DNA of 64,000 bases from Phyllobacterium sp. OV277 (lineage in GTDB: Bacteria; Pseudomonadota; Alphaproteobacteria; Rhizobiales; Rhizobiaceae). The position numbers and the translations under genes were made by a program. Shown here piece after piece: positions 728-8,716 of the stretch. The notes below the pieces were generated by a model. It had not been told where the DNA came from. It saw only the letters and a list, made by a program, of their open reading frames with translations, and did not search any database. How positions within the stretch are numbered: position 1 is the stretch's first letter; every line of letters starts with the position of its first letter. The stretch lies in assembly GCF_900104355.1 (NCBI RefSeq), contig NZ_FNIY01000001.1, forward strand, positions 496,001 to 560,000, read 5' to 3'.

Positions 728-2140
728 GTGAAGCCATTTGATGAGATGATCAAAACCGGCGGTCAGGTACGCCCGCCATATGAACAACTGCAATGCTGGC
801 TTGATACCCAGAACCCGGAAAGGTTTGCGCAGAAAGCGCGCGATGCAGAAAATGTCTTTCGCAAGACCGGGATTACCTTCGCCGTCTATGGCGACGAAGA
901 AGCGGCAGAGCGCCTGATCCCATTCGATATCATTCCACGCATCATCACCGGCAATGAATGGCGACGACTGTCGCAGGGCATCGAACAGCGCGTAATGGCC
1001 CTCAATGCTTTTCTTGATGACATTTATCACCGTCAGGAAATTATCCGCGCAGGCCGTATCCCGCGGGAACTTTTCACCCACAACGATGCCTTCCTGCCCG
1101 AGATGGTGGGTTTCCGGCCACCCGGCAATGTTTACACCCATATTATTGGTGTCGACATCGTCCGAACCGAAGAAAATCAGTTCTACGTTCTCGAAGACAA
1201 TGCCCGCACGCCGTCAGGTGTTTCCTATATGCTGGAAAACCGCGAGACGATGATGCAGCTGTTTCCGGAACTGTTCCAGCAGATCAAGGTCCGGCCCGTC
1301 GAAACCTACCCCAAATTGCTGCGGCAATCGCTGGCCGCCGTCGCGCCTCCCGGCTGCAATGGCACGCCGACAATCGCAGTTCTTACTCCCGGCATCTACA
1401 ACTCAGCCTATTTCGAACATGCGTTTCTGGCCGATCAGATGGGTGTTGAACTTGTCGAGGGCAGTGATCTCAAGATCGAGAACGGCAAGGTGGTCATGCG
1501 CACCACCGAGGGCAACCGCGCCATCGATGTGCTTTACCGGCGCGTGGACGATTCCTATCTCGATCCCCTCACCTTCCGCCGCGATTCAACGCTTGGCGTT
1601 GCCGGGATCATGGATGTCTACCGTTCGGGCAATATCACCATCGCCAATGCACCCGGCACCGGTATTGCCGATGACAAGGCGCTTTATTCCTACATGCCCG
1701 AGATTGTCGAGTTCTATACGGGCCGCAAGGCGATCCTTGAAAATGTTCCGACACATCGCTGCTCCGAGCCGGATACATTGAAATATGTGCTGGAAAATCT
1801 GGCGGAGCTTGTCGTCAAGGAAGTGCATGGTTCGGGCGGCTACGGCATGCTTGTCGGCCCGGCGGCTACAAAGAAAGAGTGCGAAGATTTTGCGCTAAAA
1901 CTCAAGGCCAATCCGAAGAACTATATCGCCCAGCCGACTTTGGCTCTGTCGACAACGCCGATCATGACCGAAAAAGGTCTGGCACCGCGTCACGTCGATT
2001 TACGCCCCTTCGTGCTTGTGTCGGACCGTATCCGCATCACGCCGGGTGGCCTGACGCGCGTGGCACTCAAAGAAGGCTCGCTCGTTGTCAATTCCAGCCA
2101 GGGAGGCGGAACAAAAGACACCTGGGTTCTCGACGATTGA
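728..2140 (+). CDS. Circularly permuted ATP-grasp protein
   Basis: The 470-residue product belongs to the circularly permuted ATP-grasp family (DUF404/DUF407), recognised by segments such as VLEDNARTPSGVSYMLENR near residue 155 and the glycine-rich VKEVHGSGGYGMLVGP near residue 365. Members are predicted carboxylate-amine ligases that form a peptide-like bond with ATP; the physiological substrate is not known. It starts at GTG 728, 7 bases after GAAGGGG; an ATG at 724 leads to a stop within a few codons and is excluded. It is the first gene of a set with the alpha-E protein (72 bases downstream), a transglutaminase and the Anbu peptidase, a combination repeatedly found in proteobacteria and suggesting a modification/hydrolysis pathway for a peptide or protein target. 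Confidence 0.9.
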   Translation: MKPFDEMIKTGGQVRPPYEQLQCWLDTQNPERFAQKARDAENVFRKTGITFAVYGDEEAAERLIPFDIIPRIITGNEWRRLSQGIEQRVMALNAFLDDIYHRQEIIRAGRIPRELFTHNDAFLPEMVGFRPPGNVYTHIIGVDIVRTEENQFYVLEDNARTPSGVSYMLENRETMMQLFPELFQQIKVRPVETYPKLLRQSLAAVAPPGCNGTPTIAVLTPGIYNSAYFEHAFLADQMGVELVEGSDLKIENGKVVMRTTEGNRAIDVLYRRVDDSYLDPLTFRRDSTLGVAGIMDVYRSGNITIANAPGTGIADDKALYSYMPEIVEFYTGRKAILENVPTHRCSEPDTLKYVLENLAELVVKEVHGSGGYGMLVGPAATKKECEDFALKLKANPKNYIAQPTLALSTTPIMTEKGLAPRHVDLRPFVLVSDRIRITPGGLTRVALKEGSLVVNSSQGGGTKDTWVLDD

Positions 2141-2212
2141 ATAAGCCGAATGGGTAATGAGGGCTGCCACAGACGGCCCCGTCAATAAATAAAAGAGGGA
2201 TACAACCGAAAC

Positions 2213-3154
2213 ATGCTTCTTGGTCGCACCGCGAATGGTCTCTACTGGATGTTCCGCTATATCGAGCGGGCAGAGAATATGGCGCGTCTGATCGACGCCG
2301 GCTTGCGGATGGCTTTGACAAAAACCTCGGACGCACCGGAGGAATGGTCTTCCGTGCTGATGAGTGCTGGTGTCAAAATCGGCTATGACGCAAAATACCG
2401 CGAGTACAATGCCAGCCTCGTCTCGGATTTTCTGTTGCGGGACCTCAGCAATCCATCGAGCGTGATGTCATGCGTTGAAACCGCCCGTTCCAACGCCCGC
2501 ATGGTGCGCACGGCGCTGACCCGCGAGGCATGGGAAAGCGTCAATGAGACGTGGATGATCCTGAAATCCACCCTCGCCTCCGCCATTCCGGAAACCGATC
2601 TTCCGCGCGTTCTGGACCAGATCAAGCGCGAAACCGCCATCATCCGCGGCGCCTTCCACGGCACCATGCTGCGCAACGAGATTTTCAACTTTGCCCGGCT
2701 TGGCACCTTTATCGAGCGGGCCGATAATACGGCACGCATTCTCGACGTGAAATATTATGTGCTGCTGCCCTCGATTTCCTATGTCGGCACGACGCTCGAC
2801 AACTTTCAGTGGGAGTCGATCCTGCGCTCAGTTTCAGCGCACCGCTCCTATCGCTGGGTCTATGATGTCGAATACAATCCGGTGAATATTGCGGATTATC
2901 TGATCCTCAACTCGCGCATGCCGCGTTCACTGAATTTCTGCTATTCGAACATCGTCGATAATCTCAAATATCTTGCCAGTGATTACGGCAAACGGCATGA
3001 GTGCCACGATATGTCGGAAAACATCATGACTCGGCTCGAGAACAACGAAATTCGCAGCATTTTCGACAATGGCCTGCACGAATTTCTGAGTGACCTGATC
3101 TATCAAACCAATGGTCTCGGCAGCAAAATCGCCGAAGCCTATAACTTTGATTGA
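2213..3154 (+). CDS. Alpha-E domain protein (DUF403)
   Basis: This 313-residue protein starts with the family signature MLLGRTANGLYWMFRYIERAEN and carries a second copy of the helical motif (FARLGTFIERADNTARILD, around residue 162), as expected for the all-helical alpha-E family. Alpha-E proteins are almost always encoded beside circularly permuted ATP-grasp and transglutaminase genes; their biochemical role is not established. ATG 2213 is preceded by the AG-rich AAAAGAGGGA. Its TGA overlaps the TTG at 3151, an alternative start of the next gene, so the set is probably translated in a coupled way. Confidence 0.9.
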   Translation: MLLGRTANGLYWMFRYIERAENMARLIDAGLRMALTKTSDAPEEWSSVLMSAGVKIGYDAKYREYNASLVSDFLLRDLSNPSSVMSCVETARSNARMVRTALTREAWESVNETWMILKSTLASAIPETDLPRVLDQIKRETAIIRGAFHGTMLRNEIFNFARLGTFIERADNTARILDVKYYVLLPSISYVGTTLDNFQWESILRSVSAHRSYRWVYDVEYNPVNIADYLILNSRMPRSLNFCYSNIVDNLKYLASDYGKRHECHDMSENIMTRLENNEIRSIFDNGLHEFLSDLIYQTNGLGSKIAEAYNFD

Positions 3155-3159
3155 AAATC

Positions 3160-3957
3160 ATGCTTCTGAACATCAAGCACACCTCCCGCTATCAATATGA
3201 CTATCCGGTGCAATACGCTGTCCAGCGGTTGCGTCTGCAGCCGTCAAGCTCTCCGGGGCAGAAAGTCATTGATTGGAACGTGACCGTCAGCGGCGCCGAG
3301 CAGGAAGCGAGTTATCGCGACGGCTATGGCAACCGCACCCAGCTTGTGCGACTTGATCGCGACGTCAAGGAACTCGTCATCGAGGCGACGGGACAGGTGG
3401 AAACCGAAGACCGCTCCGGCGTATTAGGCAAGGTCTACAATTTTATGCCCATCTGGCTTTATGAGCGTGAAACGGAGCTGACAAAGCCCGGAGATGCCAT
3501 AAAACAGCTGGCGGCAAGCCTTAAAGTCACAAATGACAGGCTGGCGGTTATGCACGAGCTGATGACCACGCTGCACAAGGTTGTCGCCTATACGCCGGGA
3601 ACGACCAACATCACCACCACGGCCGAGGAAGCCCTCACCCTTGGGACGGGCGTCTGTCAGGATCACACCCATGTTTTCCTCGCGGTTGCCCGCGTATTGA
3701 AAATCCCTGCCCGCTACGTTTCGGGGTATCTGATGATGCTGGATAGCATCGAGCAGACAGCCACCCATGCCTGGGCGGAAGCACATATTGACGGATTGGG
3801 CTGGGTGGGTTTCGACGCGGCCAATGATATCTGCCCGAACGAGCATTATATCCGTGTTGCCTGCGGCCTCGACTACAACGAAGCCTCGCCAATTTCCGGT
3901 ATGCGCTTCGGTCCCGGCATGGAATCACTTGCCGTCGACCTCAATGTAGAGCAGTAA
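3160..3957 (+). CDS. Transglutaminase family protein
   Basis: The product has the core of bacterial transglutaminase-like cysteine proteases: GTGVCQDHTHVF supplies the nucleophile (Cys166 with this start), THAWAEAHI the histidine (His204) and WVGFDAAND the aspartate (Asp219). No signal peptide is seen, so it should be cytoplasmic. I chose ATG 3160; TTG 3151, which overlaps the alpha-E stop, would add three residues and cannot be excluded. In related clusters this enzyme is thought to be a peptidase or amidase acting on the same target as the ATP-grasp and alpha-E proteins. It is followed after 32 bases by the Anbu gene. Confidence 0.88.
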   Translation: MLLNIKHTSRYQYDYPVQYAVQRLRLQPSSSPGQKVIDWNVTVSGAEQEASYRDGYGNRTQLVRLDRDVKELVIEATGQVETEDRSGVLGKVYNFMPIWLYERETELTKPGDAIKQLAASLKVTNDRLAVMHELMTTLHKVVAYTPGTTNITTTAEEALTLGTGVCQDHTHVFLAVARVLKIPARYVSGYLMMLDSIEQTATHAWAEAHIDGLGWVGFDAANDICPNEHYIRVACGLDYNEASPISGMRFGPGMESLAVDLNVEQ

Positions 3958-3989
3958 TCGCCGAGATTTTTTAGAATTCGGGATTCGCT

Positions 3990-4721
3990 ATGACCTATTG
4001 CGTCGGGCTTAAATTGGATCGTGGGCTTGTGTTCATGTCGGACACGAGAACCAATGCCGGCGTCGACAACATCTCCACGTTCAAGAAGATGTACACATGG
4101 GCAAAGCCCGGTGACCGCGTTATTACACTGCTGTCATCAGGCAATCTTGCCACCACCCAGACGGTCATCAGCATTCTCAACGAGCGGACAAAGATCCCTT
4201 CCGAGCGCGCACCATCGATCTTTGACATGCCATCCATGTTCCAGACGGCGAAGCTGGTGGGCGATACGATCAAAAGCGTCATTCACGATGTGGATTCCGA
4301 TGGCCAGCGCGCCGATTCCTTCGGCGCATCGATTATTCTCGGCGGCCAGATAAAGGGCGGCGAACCACGCCTGTTCCTCATCTATCCCGAAGGCAATTTC
4401 ATTGAATCATCCCCAGATACGCCGTTTTTCCAGATTGGCGAGCACAAATACGGCAAGCCGATTATTGTACGCTCCTACGATCCGGCAATGACATTTGAAG
4501 AAGCGACCAAGCTGCTGTTCGTGTCCTTCGATTCCACACTAAAATCCAATCTTTCGGTCGGATTGCCGCTGGATATGCAGTTCTATGAAGCCGACAGCCT
4601 CAAACTCGGCTTTGAAAAACGCATCGAGCGCAATGATCCCTATTACGAAGCCATTTCCGAAGGCTGGTCACAGGCCCTGAAACTGGCATTCCAAAGCCTG
4701 CCTACGTTCAAGATTGAATAG
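3990..4721 (+). CDS. Anbu, proteasome-like Ntn-hydrolase peptidase
   Basis: This 243-residue protein begins MTYCVGLKLDRGLVFMSDTR. Thr2 directly after the initiator Met is the expected N-terminal nucleophile, so no propeptide is needed; Asp18 in the SDTR motif and Lys32/33 in the following strand correspond to the other active-site residues of proteasome beta-type folds. The sequence matches the Anbu (ancestral beta subunit, bacterial proteasome homologue) family rather than HslV, being about 70 residues longer with an extended C-terminus. Published structures of Anbu show open helical or lock-washer rings, and its substrates remain unclear. No ATPase unfoldase gene is nearby; instead it closes the ATP-grasp/alpha-E/transglutaminase set. 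The start is fixed by the requirement for Met-Thr at the N-terminus. Confidence 0.92.
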   Translation: MTYCVGLKLDRGLVFMSDTRTNAGVDNISTFKKMYTWAKPGDRVITLLSSGNLATTQTVISILNERTKIPSERAPSIFDMPSMFQTAKLVGDTIKSVIHDVDSDGQRADSFGASIILGGQIKGGEPRLFLIYPEGNFIESSPDTPFFQIGEHKYGKPIIVRSYDPAMTFEEATKLLFVSFDSTLKSNLSVGLPLDMQFYEADSLKLGFEKRIERNDPYYEAISEGWSQALKLAFQSLPTFKIE

Positions 4722-4796: not shown

Positions 4797-4910
4797 GTTG
4801 GGTGCTTTAGGATGACAGAGATGGATGGGTTGCAGGGAGTTAAATTCTGCAACATGGGTGACTACCGTTGTAGCGCTCCACTCTCCCTCCCCATTCGTTG
4901 CACAACTATT

Positions 4911-5050
4911 GGTTCGTGGTTCGACAAGCTCACCATGAGGGGCTTGGGTGGATGCAACGATAATCGCAAACATTCCATCGCTAATGTAGCAGAACTTGAC
5001 TCCCTGCAATCCTCACCCTCCCTCATGGTGAGCTTGTCGAACCACGAACC
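4911..5050. repeat. Composite palindromic element, copy A
   Basis: This 140-bp unit is bounded by perfect 30-base inverted arms (4911-4940 and 5021-5050) containing GGTTCGACAAGCTCACC. The interior has conserved blocks GATGCAACGATAATCGCA and AGAACTTGACTCCCTGCA, shared with copies B and C. A diverged fragment of the interior also appears just upstream, near 4830-4856. No transposase is encoded. The structure resembles a MITE or a paired REP (BIME-like) element. The remainder of 4722-5069 contains only the 4751 hairpin and this repeat material. Confidence 0.8.
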
Positions 5051-5069
5051 ACCCTCATGCAACGCACCG

Positions 5070-5363
5070 CTATGAATGCGGGCATCGGCTTCTTGAAAGC
5101 CGAGGCAAGCGTTCATAATCCAACGCGATCAACGCCTGTTTCTTAACCCGTGACCAGCCCTTGATCTGACGTTCCCGCGCTATCGCATCAAGGATGCGGT
5201 CATAGGTTTCTGTGAAAACCAATTGAACAGGGCGGCGGTTCTTTGTGTATCCATCGCAGATACCGGCATTGTGTTCCCAAACACGCGCTTCGATCTCCTG
5301 CTTTGTAAGCCCGGTATAATAGGACCCATCAGAGCATAGCAGTATGTAGACCGTGACTTCCAT
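5070..5363 (-). CDS. GIY-YIG nuclease family protein
   Basis: A 97-residue protein starting at ATG 5363 (MEVTVYILLCSDGSYYTGLT). The VYILLC...YYTGLT pair is the GIY-YIG core, followed by the expected Arg and His in ARVWEHN and the later ARERQIKGWSR segment typical of small single-domain UPF0213/URI-type members. Such proteins are predicted metal-dependent endonucleases; many have no known role. The frame stays open upstream to 5546, but that extension translates repeat copy B and is rejected. The gene lies between two repeats of the same family, ending 19 bases from copy A and starting 85 bases from copy B. This raises the possibility that gene and repeats form one unit. Confidence 0.85.
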   Translation of the reverse strand: MEVTVYILLCSDGSYYTGLTKQEIEARVWEHNAGICDGYTKNRRPVQLVFTETYDRILDAIARERQIKGWSRVKKQALIALDYERLPRLSRSRCPHS

Positions 5364-5448
5364 GATTGCCCCGCAGCATCCGAAGCAACATTCTAGAAAA
5401 GCGGGCTGGGCTGTACAATTCAACGAAAGTTGGATGAATAGGGTTCGT

Positions 5449-5583
5449 GGTTCGTGGTTCGACAAGCTCACCATGAGGGGCTTGGGTGGATGCAACGATA
5501 ATCGCAACATTACATCGCTAATGTTGCAGAACTTAACTCCCTGCAACCCTCACTCTCCCTCATGGTTGTTATGTTGAACCACG
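5449..5583. repeat. Composite palindromic element, copy B
   Basis: Same orientation as copy A. The left arm (5449-5478) is identical to that of copy A over 30 bases; the right arm (about 5558-5583) is eroded, reading CATGGTTGTTATGTTGAACC instead of the usual sequence. Interior blocks match copy A with few changes. The loss in one arm suggests an older or decaying copy. Confidence 0.75.
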
Positions 5584-5660
5584 CGCTATGCTCATGCCAC
5601 TATTCTCATATTCAAATAAATCCAACCGAGGAATTGACCAGTTGCAGACCCCGTTATGTC

Positions 5661-5798
5661 GTGGTTCGACAGGCTCACCATGAGGGGGAGTAGAGGGTTG
5701 CAGGGAGTCAAGTTCTGCAACATTAGTGATGGAATGTTTGCGATTATCGTTGCATCCACCCAAGCCCCTCATGGTGAGCTTGTCGAACCACGAACCAC
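5661..5798. repeat. Composite palindromic element, copy C (inverted)
   Basis: The unit is in the opposite orientation to copies A and B. Arms GTGGTTCGACAGGCTCACC... (from 5661) and the full-length complement (to 5798) flank the same interior blocks, now reading TTGCAGGGAGTCAAGTTCTG and TTGCGATTATCGTTGCATC. One arm has a single change (AGG for AAG). Apart from copies B and C, the stretch 5584-5660 and 5364-5448 shows no gene. Confidence 0.78.
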
Positions 5799-5837
5799 GC
5801 ACCGTAAACCACGCGTGACAGGACCTACAATCCATCA

Positions 5838-5861
5838 ACAAAAAGGGGCGCATTGCGCCCC
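5838..5861 (-). terminator. Intrinsic terminator of L,D-transpeptidase gene
   Basis: On the minus strand a 7-bp GC-rich stem (GGGGCGC with GCGCCCC, 3-base loop) is followed directly by TTTTTG. It lies 37 bases after the stop of the minus-strand transpeptidase gene and has the classical form of a Rho-independent terminator. Confidence 0.85.
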
Positions 5862-5897
5862 TCATCATATCAATATTCTGGCATCCCAAACCAACGC

Positions 5898-7814
5898 TTA
5901 GAGCTGTGCAGTCTGGTTGCTCACAGCCTGACGAACAGCCGTGGTCTTGACGATGGCTTTCTCCATATAGAGATCACGCTGGTAGACGTCATCGAAATAA
6001 TGGATGGCGCCTGTTTTGGCATCCGGCCATGCGGTGAAGTACGAGACGTAAACCGGTAGCTGATCCTTGACCCGGACACTCTTCTCGTTCTTGCCAAAGT
6101 ACTGATTCAGCTCCTCAACCGGCACACCAAGCACGGCAGCCGCCATATCGCGCGGGCGCTCCAGACGGATACAACCATGGCTCAGCGCGCGCATATCCTT
6201 CTTGAAGTAGGATTTCGCCGGTGTGTCATGCATGTAGATGTCATGGCTGTTCGGGAACAGGATTTTCAATTCACCCAGCGCATTGTCGAGGCTCGGCTTC
6301 TGGCGGATGCCAACGCCGCCGCCACTTGATGCAACCTGCGACCAATCGACCGAACTTGACGGGATAACACGTCCCGATTTGTCATAGACCTCATAGCCGC
6401 TATTTTCGAGATAGGATGGGTTGGCAAGAATCTTCGGCATCATCTCGTTGAGAATGATCGAGCGCGGCACACCCCAGGATGGGTTGAACACAACGGTCTC
6501 AATCGTATCGTCGAAGAAATAGGTCTGGTTGGTTGGCGAGCCAACAACGATGTTCATCGCCAGCTTTTCGGTGCTGTCATCAAAATACTGTGCCCGGAAG
6601 GCGGGCTGGTTGATGAAGACGTAACGCTTGCCGAAATCATGCGGCAGCCAGCGCAGACGTTCCATGGAATAGAGAATGCGGTCGCGCTTGGAACTGTTTG
6701 TCTCGCCCTGCAGCGAACTGATGGTGCCACGGCCAATCACACCATCAGGCTTCTTGCCCTGACTGGTCTGGAAATCCTTGATCGCCTCGACAAGGCTTTG
6801 GTCATAAACCGTCGCGTTCTCGTGTTCCTGCAACACGGCTTCGTGCTTGACCAGAAAATCTTTCGGCGCCTTCGCCTTGATGAGCGCAACCACGTTGCGC
6901 AGCTCAGGATTGTCTTCGCCCGGACGGATCATGGTGCCGGTGGCAACACGCACCACTGGCTCCGACCCTACATCACCACCGAGCGCATGCAGATTCTGTT
7001 TCAGCTCCGCATACCACTTGCTCTGCGGCTCAAAACCCTTGAGCAGCGCCGCGGCGTCATTGCTGGACGCGAGTTGTTCGATGACGGCACGCGGCTTGAC
7101 GCGGTCGACGGCTAGATCATGGAAGCCGCTCAGACGGTTTGGATTGATGCGGCCATCGCCCTGATCCATTGCGTAACGCAGGGCACGGGCCGACATTGTC
7201 AGTTCGAAATCGGCCAGTTCTTTCAGACGTGCCGGGATATCGGCCCGGTCATACGCGTCGCTTGGCAGCTTGACCGCGTAATCCTTAGGATCAAGGCCCT
7301 CTTCGCCCGCCGCGTTGAACAGGGCAGCCACAGCCTTGGCTTTGGCTGAAACATCATAAGACGACGTCCAGATGGGCTGCTGCTTGGTGGCGTAGTAGGA
7401 GACGACAGCATCCGCTATGTCTTTCTCCGCCAGAACATGGGCTTCCTTGATCTGCTCGATCTTCAGGCCAAACTGTTCAAGCGGTATCTGCGTCGCAGAA
7501 TCCGAATTGTGATTGGCCGAGGCAGTCAACTGGGAATCGATCTTGGAAAAATCGATCCGAACCAGCGCATCTGGCTTGTAATCATAATTTTTCGGGGCCG
7601 TTACCGTCACACGCTTGATCGGTGTCGAGCGGGACACGTTTGACTGGGCAGGCACAACTGGCCGGGGCGGATAGACAGGCTGCGCCTGTACCCGGCGGCT
7701 TCCGAACAGAAAATCCATCAGATTGTCGGCGGCCAGTGCCGGGGACATGGAAATGGCTGTTGCTGACAACATTGCAGCTACAAAAATCGCATGCTTTTTC
7801 GAATAGGAATTCAT
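5898..7814 (-). CDS. Murein L,D-transpeptidase, YcbB-like
   Basis: This 638-residue protein has an N-terminal signal peptide (KKHAIFVAAMLSATAISMSPALAAD), a peptidoglycan-binding segment around residues 340-380 (DFQTSQGKKPDGVIGRGTI) and a C-terminal YkuD domain with the catalytic motif SHGCIRLERP (Cys near residue 546). It should cross-link meso-diaminopimelate residues of peptidoglycan in the periplasm, forming 3-3 bonds, or attach proteins to the wall. Length and order match YcbB/LdtD-type enzymes. ATG 7814, preceded by GGGCGAG, gives an intact signal peptide; an upstream extension of 16 codons is rejected. It is divergent from a second, smaller transpeptidase gene. Confidence 0.9.
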   Translation of the reverse strand: MNSYSKKHAIFVAAMLSATAISMSPALAADNLMDFLFGSRRVQAQPVYPPRPVVPAQSNVSRSTPIKRVTVTAPKNYDYKPDALVRIDFSKIDSQLTASANHNSDSATQIPLEQFGLKIEQIKEAHVLAEKDIADAVVSYYATKQQPIWTSSYDVSAKAKAVAALFNAAGEEGLDPKDYAVKLPSDAYDRADIPARLKELADFELTMSARALRYAMDQGDGRINPNRLSGFHDLAVDRVKPRAVIEQLASSNDAAALLKGFEPQSKWYAELKQNLHALGGDVGSEPVVRVATGTMIRPGEDNPELRNVVALIKAKAPKDFLVKHEAVLQEHENATVYDQSLVEAIKDFQTSQGKKPDGVIGRGTISSLQGETNSSKRDRILYSMERLRWLPHDFGKRYVFINQPAFRAQYFDDSTEKLAMNIVVGSPTNQTYFFDDTIETVVFNPSWGVPRSIILNEMMPKILANPSYLENSGYEVYDKSGRVIPSSSVDWSQVASSGGGVGIRQKPSLDNALGELKILFPNSHDIYMHDTPAKSYFKKDMRALSHGCIRLERPRDMAAAVLGVPVEELNQYFGKNEKSVRVKDQLPVYVSYFTAWPDAKTGAIHYFDDVYQRDLYMEKAIVKTTAVRQAVSNQTAQL

Positions 7815-8107
7815 AATACTCGCCCAGATGGTACAGTCACGCCCGCAACGAATGCAGGCCACGAATGGTGATTCACAGCCAGTTTCGCCTCATCCTATTT
7901 ACAATCTTTTAACAATAACCCGTCCCCCGATTTATATTCACGCGAGCTGCAAAAGAGCTGTGAATACGACTTTTGTCTCATTTAACCCGATTCATCACAG
8001 CTTTCATGACGATTCGCATACCTGGCCCTTGACCAAATGAATTCTTTTGCAAAACATGCAAGAATGTCACAGTTCAAGTGACAGGAAACATTGAATTGGG
8101 GGATTCG
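7815..8107. other. Divergent intergenic region between two transpeptidases
   Basis: This stretch separates the starts of two L,D-transpeptidase genes pointing away from each other. The part 7880-8095 is AT-rich compared with the genes and must hold both promoters, but I see no -35/-10 pair strong enough to name. The GGGGGA at 8098-8103 is the ribosome binding site of the plus-strand gene. Confidence 0.4.
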
Positions 8108-8716
8108 ATGCATAGATGTCTCCAAGTAACTTTACTATTATTTACTATAGCAGGAATAAGTACTTTAAGCACGCCTGCAAGTGCAGGTGATAATCTTCTT
8201 AAGAAAATATTTCTTGCGGGGAAACCGGATCGACCCGCAGGGAAATACCAGTCAGACCGGTCACCGATCCCGCGCCAATATGTCTCTTTTTCAGAGGGCT
8301 ATGAGCCGGGCACCATTGTCATCAATACGCGGCAACGCAGGCTCTATCACGTCACCGAGTTTGGGCGGGCTATGGCCTATGGGATTGGCGTCGGCCGCGA
8401 AGGGTTTACCTGGAGCGGAACGAAGCGCATTTCGCGCAAGGCCGAATGGCCGGGCTGGACACCGCCAACCATCATGCGGACGCGTGAAGCCAGAAAAGGC
8501 CGTATCCTGCCAGCCTATATGGCCGGTGGTCCAAGCAATCCGCTGGGTGCGCGAGCCATGTATCTTGGTTCAAGCATGTATCGCATTCACGGTACCAATC
8601 AGCCATGGACGATTGGCCATGCCATGTCGTCAGGCTGTATCCGCATGGCCAATGATGATGTGATGGATCTCTATGATCAGGTTGGCATCGGTACGAAGGT
8701 TGTGGTCCTGCGATAA
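8108..8716 (+). CDS. L,D-transpeptidase (YkuD domain)
   Basis: A 202-residue secreted protein with an N-terminal signal sequence (LQVTLLLFTIAGISTLSTPASAG) and one YkuD domain covering most of the rest. The active-site motif is IHGTNQPWTIGHAMSSGCIRM, with the nucleophilic Cys near residue 179. It resembles the short ErfK/YbiS-type enzymes that form 3-3 cross-links or link lipoproteins to peptidoglycan. ATG 8108 is chosen because GGGGGA lies 4-5 bases upstream and it starts the signal peptide; a GTG at 8078 would add an unlikely extension. The gene ends 2 bases before the convergent DUF971 gene. Confidence 0.9.
   Translation: MHRCLQVTLLLFTIAGISTLSTPASAGDNLLKKIFLAGKPDRPAGKYQSDRSPIPRQYVSFSEGYEPGTIVINTRQRRLYHVTEFGRAMAYGIGVGREGFTWSGTKRISRKAEWPGWTPPTIMRTREARKGRILPAYMAGGPSNPLGARAMYLGSSMYRIHGTNQPWTIGHAMSSGCIRMANDDVMDLYDQVGIGTKVVVLR

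What the first reader, a model, noticed from the sequence alone, without database searches (positions are those of the whole stretch)
728..4721. Anbu proteasome-like peptidase in a four-gene set with ATP-grasp, alpha-E and transglutaminase
Four adjacent same-strand genes encode a circularly permuted ATP-grasp ligase, an alpha-E helical protein, a transglutaminase-type cysteine hydrolase and an Anbu peptidase whose Thr2 follows the initiator Met. This combination recurs in proteobacteria but its substrate is unknown. The mix of a ligase and two hydrolases suggests a tag-and-remove system or the making and recycling of a small peptide, as in amide-forming pathways.
Basis: partly seen in the sequence, partly recalled or inferred. 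Interest (0 to 1): 0.7.

Follow-up and report, generated by a model that had tools for sequence, protein, structure and literature searches.

The report
Known Anbu ligase-and-peptidase operon
The window holds a complete copy of a bacterial four-gene set that is already in the literature, a proteasome-like peptidase beside an amide-forming enzyme; its job is unknown, and relatives compared here hint that it touches a protein-labelling route bacteria use for turnover.

Summary
Window 728-4721 carries CP_ATPgrasp_2, Alpha-E, a transglutaminase-like cysteine hydrolase (TG) and Anbu on one strand, catalytic residues intact. This is the four-gene Anbu operon already described (PMC5666114, PMC6376114, both citing Iyer 2009); the tag-or-peptide-synthesis idea is in print too. 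New here:
(1) ATP-grasp and Alpha-E occur in the same 48 of 142 class genomes. Anbu genomes have Alpha-E in 35 of 35 (class) and 113 of 115 (phylum) cases; 13 of 48 and 58 of 171 Alpha-E genomes lack Anbu.
(2) TG is the loose part: absent from 5 of 21 linked Anbu operons, without its Cys in 2 more. Anbu's Thr-Asp-Lys is kept in 52 of 53 rows.
(3) Alpha-E is an internal duplication, one ER helix per half.
(4) In a sister clade (7 of 44 type-1 sets) the genome's only Bpt, an N-degron aminoacyl-transferase, follows Alpha-E. Those genomes carry an Anbu with an Arg-rich S1 pocket, within 2 kb of clpS in 6 of the 9 genomes that have it.
Best reading: a two-part ATP-dependent amide ligase whose product Anbu (often with TG) hydrolyses; substrate unknown. 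An N-degron link is the most novel reading not excluded.

The parts
728..2140 (+). Circularly permuted type-2 ATP-grasp amide ligase (type 1, clade I); GTG start
   Evidence: family-wide conserved residues; clade
2213..3154 (+). Alpha-E protein; two homologous halves (about residues 1-150 and 151-313), each with an ER helix (E18-R19, E168-R169)
   Evidence: predicted all-helical model
3160..3957 (+). Transglutaminase-like (papain-type) cysteine hydrolase, triad Cys166-His203-Asp219 intact; TTG at 3151 is an alternative start
3990..4721 (+). Anbu proteasome-like N-terminal-threonine hydrolase of the Anbu-1 type: Thr2, Asp18, Lys33; S1 pocket T-F-S-L-T
   Evidence: S1 residues as named in PMC5666114
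513..540 (+). Terminator-like hairpin with T tract that separates the set from the gene upstream
   Evidence: consensus match only

Best explanation
ATP-grasp and Alpha-E together form a two-part ATP-dependent amide ligase. It activates a carboxylate, probably on a short peptide or a protein end, as an acyl phosphate and joins it to an amine. Anbu, and in most species the TG-like cysteine hydrolase, then trims or removes what the ligase made. Anbu is the dependent, downstream enzyme. Shown here: family identity, intact catalytic residues, the obligate ATP-grasp/Alpha-E pair in the class sample, Anbu's dependence on that pair, and natural fusion of the two ligase parts. Inferred: ligase chemistry, order of action and substrate class. 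Not known: the substrate.
For: ATP-grasp and Alpha-E occur in exactly the same 48 of 142 genomes, and TG in those 48 plus one (compared). The two are fused in the type-2 form (about 800 aa), including the second set in the window's own genome. All 35 Anbu-bearing genomes of the class sample, and 113 of 115 in the phylum sample, have Alpha-E. A predicted fused ATP-grasp/Alpha-E protein of Rhizobium johnstonii matches 3n6x, then amide and peptide ligases: eukaryotic-type glutathione synthetases, E-64 ligase Cp1B, YgiC, YjfC, glutathionylspermidine synthetase and trypanothione synthetase; Cp1B is a tested amide former (passages). Anbu's catalytic Thr-Asp-Lys is kept in 52 of 53 rows. The Yersinia ATP-grasp releases phosphate from ATP.
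Against: No specific interaction among the Yersinia operon proteins in pull-downs and no Anbu peptidase activity on 20S substrates; phosphate release was not stimulated by Gln, Glu or Anbu, and plain ATPase activity was not excluded. Two genomes of one genus keep an intact-looking Anbu without ATP-grasp or Alpha-E. In PMC5666114 the authors judge a peptide-synthesis role less likely than protein degradation. Co-occurrence counts are not corrected for shared descent.
Confidence: 0.5

Rival explanations
1. The system serves the N-degron pathway. The ligase and Anbu make or edit protein or peptide ends that Bpt and ClpS/ClpA also handle, so Anbu acts on the same class of labelled ends. In the sister clade the ends are acidic; in the window's clade they are hydrophobic.
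For: In 7 of 44 type-1 sets, each from a different family, the gene right after Alpha-E on the same strand is the genome's only Bpt (46 to 238 bp between profile hits). All 7 are among the 9 genomes with the divergent Anbu (Fisher p 9e-7 over the 44, not corrected for descent). That Anbu lies within 2 kb of the only ClpS in 6 of 9 genomes (positions; four ClpS and two ClpA-type neighbours confirmed by Pfam), against 0 of the 26 other Anbu genomes. Its S1 pocket ends in R-R in 9 of 9 rows, the basic Anbu-2 kind that PMC5666114 proposes for acidic cleavage. Bpt's preference for acidic N-termini is recalled.
Against: The window's own genome has Bpt and ClpS on other contigs. In the sister clade Anbu points away from clpS and is at least as often beside a D-Ala carboxypeptidase (7 of 9) and a phasin (7 of 9), so inherited gene order may explain it. 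The Bpt link may be one ancestral event kept by descent. Bpt lies elsewhere in the two other divergent-Anbu genomes (G035, G112; G112's set ends at a contig edge). The pattern was found after the fact.
Confidence: 0.18
2. Anbu is an ATP-independent general protease for protein turnover under nitrogen shortage, and the ligase genes are only co-regulated.
For: PMC5666114 (section 14 read) argues for protein degradation, reports binding of proteasome inhibitors, and cites Anbu upregulation in nitrogen-limited P. putida. The related cluster I35_5080-83 of Burkholderia cenocepacia (ATP-grasp, Alpha-E, TG, large TG; no Anbu) falls 6.0- to 9.4-fold in an ntrC mutant. Sigma54-like sites were found before 2 of 41 type-1 sets at shuffle p under 0.01, one of them perfect, and before the Klebsiella set at p 0.043.
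Against: Anbu is almost never found without the ligase pair. It did not cleave 20S substrates. No sigma54 site stands before the window operon (best 11.5 of 16, shuffle p 0.46), and none before 72 type-2 sets at p under 0.01.
Confidence: 0.17
3. The set makes and recycles a free small peptide or peptide-amine conjugate (as glutathionylspermidine synthetase/amidase does), with no protein target.
For: Nearest folds after 3n6x are glutathione-type, Cp1B, YgiC/YjfC and glutathionylspermidine or trypanothione ligases. The own type-2 set is followed on the same strand by a class-V aminotransferase and, by eye from the ORF translations, a peptide ABC transporter.
Against: No metabolite is known to me. 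A multi-subunit proteasome-like hydrolase seems large for a free dipeptide. Clustering of called ORFs of 60 aa or more gave no group made only of short proteins (under 130 aa) in three or more genomes; that test is weak for short ORFs.
Confidence: 0.15

Closest known systems
Anbu operon as described for Yersinia bercovieri and other bacteria (PMC5666114, PMC6376114; Iyer 2009 cited there, not read)
   Same: Same four genes in the same order, seen also on a Klebsiella plasmid and in Burkholderia cenocepacia (L186); Anbu with the same catalytic residues; solved Anbu structures are its closest solved relatives
   Different: Nothing essential found. The window copy belongs to Anbu-1 and clade I
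Type-2 relative: fused ATP-grasp/Alpha-E with TG and a TG-DUF2126 amidoligase
   Same: Same ligase pair; also present in the window's own genome; beside Anbu and type-1 parts in some genomes of the phylum outside the class
   Different: Ligase parts fused, a second amidoligase added; no Anbu behind any of the 25 low-scoring (mostly fused) Alpha-E rows of the class sample
ATP-grasp peptide and amide ligases of the glutathione synthetase, GspS/YgiC and Cp1B kind
   Same: Fold of the ATP-grasp part
   Different: No Alpha-E partner recognised; their substrates are known, this one's is not
RimK/RimB and RloABC systems of Pseudomonas (PMC12239564, passages read)
   Same: ATP-grasp protein with a dedicated protease, and in rlo a transglutaminase-like protein; in rlo, ligase and protease act in one pathway by epistasis
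   Different: Unrelated protease fold (retropepsin), membrane TG that is inactive, no Alpha-E, no Anbu

Membership tests
Four-gene Anbu operon | ATP-grasp, Alpha-E, TG and Anbu in this order on one strand | tested here: met
Four-gene Anbu operon | Transcribed together | not testable with these tools
   Short gaps of 72, 5 and 32 bp fit but do not show it
Anbu (proteasome-like Ntn hydrolase) | N-terminal Thr after Met with Asp and Lys of the active site, homology to solved Anbu | tested here: met
Anbu-1 subtype | S1 pocket T20, F30, T48, L52, S55 as given in PMC5666114 | tested here: met
   Window T-F-S-L-T at the aligned columns; conservative changes at two of five
CP_ATPgrasp_2 amide ligase | Profile match over the full domain | tested here: met
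   positions 1-374 of 374, E 1.3e-164
CP_ATPgrasp_2 amide ligase | Amide bond formation | not testable with these tools
   Of the passages read, only phosphate release is reported, for the Yersinia homologue
Alpha-E | All-helical domain with conserved ER motif | tested here: met
   two ER motifs found, one per half
Transglutaminase-like cysteine hydrolase | Cys-His-Asp triad | tested here: met
   for the window; Cys lost in 4 of 25 type-1 relatives
N-degron-linked variant | Bpt directly after Alpha-E | tested here: not met
   In the window the next gene is TG and the genome's Bpt lies on another contig (C7)

The most novel reading that the evidence does not exclude
The ATP-grasp/Alpha-E ligase and Anbu are an unrecognised arm of bacterial N-degron biology. 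The ligase builds, and Anbu edits, short peptide labels on ends that Bpt and ClpS/ClpA also read. In the sister clade the ligase pair is followed by the only Bpt, and the acid-pocket Anbu mostly lies by clpS/clpA. Anbu would then be the proteasome-like editor of a second, ATP-grasp-made bacterial label.
Probability: 0.15. Interest if true: 0.85.

Novelty: already known. Interest (0 to 1): 0.45.

Why it matters
Anbu is a solved structure without a known job, and it stands near the origin of proteasomes. The window copy itself adds little. The comparisons give two handles that turn the open question into a test: Anbu depends on the ATP-grasp/Alpha-E pair and less on the TG beside it; and in one clade the pair is followed by Bpt while its Anbu carries an Arg-rich pocket and mostly lies near clpS. 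If the N-degron link holds, bacteria would have a second ATP-made end label with its own proteasome-like editor.

Tried and rejected
A sigma54/NtrC promoter before the window operon: best score 11.5 of 16, shuffle p 0.46. Of 41 type-1 sets 2 reached p under 0.01 (G033, perfect; G070) and 3 p under 0.05; of 72 type-2 sets none reached 0.01 and one 0.05; the Klebsiella set gave p 0.043, two Burkholderia sets and the own type-2 set were not significant. Nitrogen control is therefore not shown from sequence here.

A fold match for Alpha-E: none. Foldseek's best hit for Alpha-E alone had E 1.1, and nothing credible fell on that part of the fused model (which does not print aligned ranges; all hits under E 0.001 are ATP-grasp proteins). 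The models are of middling confidence (pLDDT 79.6 and 80.6), so this does not show a new fold.

Phage or mobile origin: one partial hit at a contig end in viral contigs and 4 phage records. The one opened carries gidA, dnaB, rplI and alr beside the full four-gene set and looks like bacterial chromosome under a phage name. Sets do occur on plasmids and large replicons. A mobile origin is not supported, and was not studied further.

A hidden precursor-peptide gene: clustering of called ORFs of 60 aa or more gave no group made only of short proteins in three or more genomes. That caller misses genes in G+C-rich loci (it found 31 Alpha-E proteins where 69 were found later), and shorter ORFs were not looked for.

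Alpha-E next to Bpt across the phylum sample: searches list only part of the matches, so no count is claimed there.

Strict four-gene unity: rejected.
Full report
What is there. Four same-strand genes fill window 728-4721: CP_ATPgrasp_2, Alpha-E, a transglutaminase-like hydrolase (TG) and a proteasome-family protein. The last is Anbu: its five PDB matches are solved Anbu or Anbu-like peptidase sequences, it keeps Thr2-Asp18-Lys33, and its S1 pocket reads T-F-S-L-T, the Anbu-1 type (type as defined in PMC5666114, passages). The ATP-grasp matches 3n6x over its length. Alpha-E has no solved homologue by sequence at E up to 1, nor by Foldseek of its model. The TG triad is intact. The genes lie 72, 5 and 32 bp apart.

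Already known. PMC6376114 and PMC5666114 (passages and some sections read) describe this operon, cite Iyer 2009 for the tagging or peptide-synthesis idea, and report limits: no specific interaction among the operon proteins, no cleavage of 20S substrates, phosphate release by the ATP-grasp that was not stimulated by Gln, Glu or Anbu. Iyer 2009 itself could not be read. A Klebsiella plasmid typed as conjugative carries the same four genes under standard names. So the finding is a further copy of a known set, and its interpretation is a published one.

The core and the extras. In a class sample of 142 genomes, nearly all from different families, ATP-grasp and Alpha-E occur in the same 48 genomes, and TG in those 48 plus G066 (compared). 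Anbu-like genes occur in 35 of 142: 25 strong, one partial (G075, with a changed Asp) and 9 divergent. All 35 lie inside the 48 (Fisher p 9e-23, not corrected for descent). In a phylum sample of 299 genomes (completeness 90 or more; Anbu sought with an 11-row profile) Anbu is in 115 and Alpha-E in 171; 113 of the 115 have Alpha-E. The two exceptions, G226 and G376, are one genus, also lack the ATP-grasp, and keep Anbu with all three catalytic residues beside neighbours shared with relatives that still have the pair. Dependence therefore runs from Anbu to the ligase pair: 13 of 48 and 58 of 171 Alpha-E genomes have no Anbu.

TG is the loose part. One search sorted 69 Alpha-E loci of the class sample; 25 rows scoring under 300 bits (the fused kind and a few separate ones) were set aside, leaving 44 type-1 sets. 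Within 2.6 kb downstream of Alpha-E on its strand stand TG and Anbu in 16, Anbu without TG in 5, TG without Anbu in 9 (in one, G041, Anbu lies right behind on the other strand), Bpt in 7, and none of these in 7, of which three lie at or near a contig end. In 4 of the 25 sets with TG the nucleophile Cys is gone (G012, G039, G043, G093), two of them beside an intact Anbu. So 7 of 21 linked Anbu operons have no TG with its Cys, while Thr-Asp-Lys of Anbu is kept in 52 of 53 rows. All these genomes have a TG-N-domain gene somewhere, so TG activity may come from elsewhere in the genome.

Alpha-E. The N half (residues 1-150 of the domain) and the C half of a 68-sequence alignment match each other at hhalign probability 99.4, E 6e-21, over 138 columns. 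Each half has its own ER helix; both E-R pairs are 97% or more conserved. In the type-2 form Alpha-E is fused behind the ATP-grasp. Of 80 named loci, mostly Hyphomicrobiales, 72 show TG-domain protein, fused protein, TG in this order on one strand; the other 8 lack one flank. A model of a fused protein resembles 3n6x and then glutathione-type, Cp1B, YgiC/YjfC and GspS-type ligases.

The window's genome has both forms. The second lies on contig 11 (L003): TG-DUF2126 amidoligase, fused ATP-grasp/Alpha-E, TG, then a class-V aminotransferase and ORFs that read like a peptide ABC transporter (by eye). In three genomes of the phylum outside the class (G156, G143, G149) type-1 parts, type-2 parts and Anbu stand together, and in G208, G171 and G197 Anbu stands next to the large TG protein; this ties the forms to one pathway.

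Two clades. A tree of the 44 type-1 ATP-grasps has two starred clades. Clade I, 26 rows with the window, holds all 21 sets with Anbu linked on the same strand. Clade II, 18 rows, holds Bpt 7, TG 6 and none 5. Bpt needs at least 2 changes on starred branches and 3-6 in bootstrap trees, and its clustering on the tree is not significant against shuffles (154 of 500 as low); old linkage with losses and repeated linkage are both open.

A link to the N-degron pathway. In G015, G028, G040, G051, G079, G105 and G135 the gene after Alpha-E is an ATE_N/ATE_C protein that NCBIfam calls arginyltransferase (four by Pfam, seven by NCBIfam); Bpt, the recalled name for the bacterial leucyl form, is used here. 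It is the only such gene in each of these genomes; 85 of 142 genomes have the family. The same 7 are among the 9 genomes with divergent Anbu. One of these Anbu proteins, searched against the PDB, matches solved Anbu first; all 9 rows have an I/V-A-x-R-R pocket. It lies within 2 kb of the genome's only ClpS in 6 of 9 (G015, G035, G040, G079, G112, G135; not G028, G051, G105). Of the 26 other Anbu genomes none shows this; one of them, G001, has no ClpS match, and contig breaks could hide some. PMC5666114 proposes acidic specificity for such pockets, and Bpt is recalled to act on acidic N-termini. Against this: Anbu and clpS point apart; a D-Ala carboxypeptidase and a phasin are at least as constant there, 7 of 9 each; the pattern was found after the fact; and the window's own genome lacks it. 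No paper in the held library has both words Anbu and ClpS; searches with Bpt-type terms gave nothing on the link among the rows listed (20 of 106, 1 of 1).

Regulation. The related Burkholderia cluster I35_5080-83 (no Anbu) is NtrC-dependent (PMC5491218, passages), DUF403/404/407 track urea genes in sea metagenomes (PMC3597751, passages), and Anbu is reported up in nitrogen-limited P. putida. The window operon shows no sigma54 site, so this is not carried over to it.

Verdict. Observation confirmed; system known; mechanism most likely a two-part amide ligase with Anbu as its dependent hydrolase, at 0.5. The N-degron reading is kept as the boldest not excluded, at 0.15.

Noticed in passing
window about 4900-5060 and 5650-5890; genome-wide: A REP-like repeat, TTCGACAAGCTCACCATGA, often in inverted pairs about 90-150 bp apart; 149 forward and 150 reverse sites in the genome at up to 1 mismatch, none for the reversed control.
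   Followed up: partly
window 5898-7862 (-) and 8078-8716 (+): Two L,D-transpeptidase genes follow the operon; the first by Pfam YkuD with Scaffold and PG-binding domains, the second by eye only.
   Followed up: no
window 5073-5546 (-): A GIY-YIG nuclease ORF whose upstream part, by eye, reads through the REP-like repeat.
   Followed up: no
L003 6094-16174: Type-2 set of the own genome followed on the same strand by a class-V aminotransferase and ORFs that look like a peptide ABC transporter by eye.
   Followed up: partly
L217: Record named Acinetobacter phage MD-2021a carries the full four-gene set beside gidA, dnaB, rplI and alr; probably bacterial chromosome under a phage name.
   Followed up: partly
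L041, L052, L038, L074: TG copies that have lost the catalytic Cys while His and Asp are kept; two stand beside intact Anbu.
   Followed up: yes
L189 and L190: Solitary Anbu with all catalytic residues in two genomes of one genus that lack ATP-grasp and Alpha-E: a natural test of what Anbu does alone.
   Followed up: partly
L037 (G033) upstream of the ATP-grasp: A perfect sigma54 consensus, TGGCACG-N4-TTGCT, at the called start of this relative's operon; 1 of 41 sets.
   Followed up: no
L213 5429-10608 and relatives: D-Ala carboxypeptidase, divergent Anbu, phasin, clpS, clpA: all five in 3 of 9 divergent-Anbu loci (L104, L212, L215), parts of it in most others, ClpS absent from 3.
   Followed up: yes
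G082:C24 and G128:C22: Second Anbu genes in two class genomes; their surroundings were not looked at.
   Followed up: no
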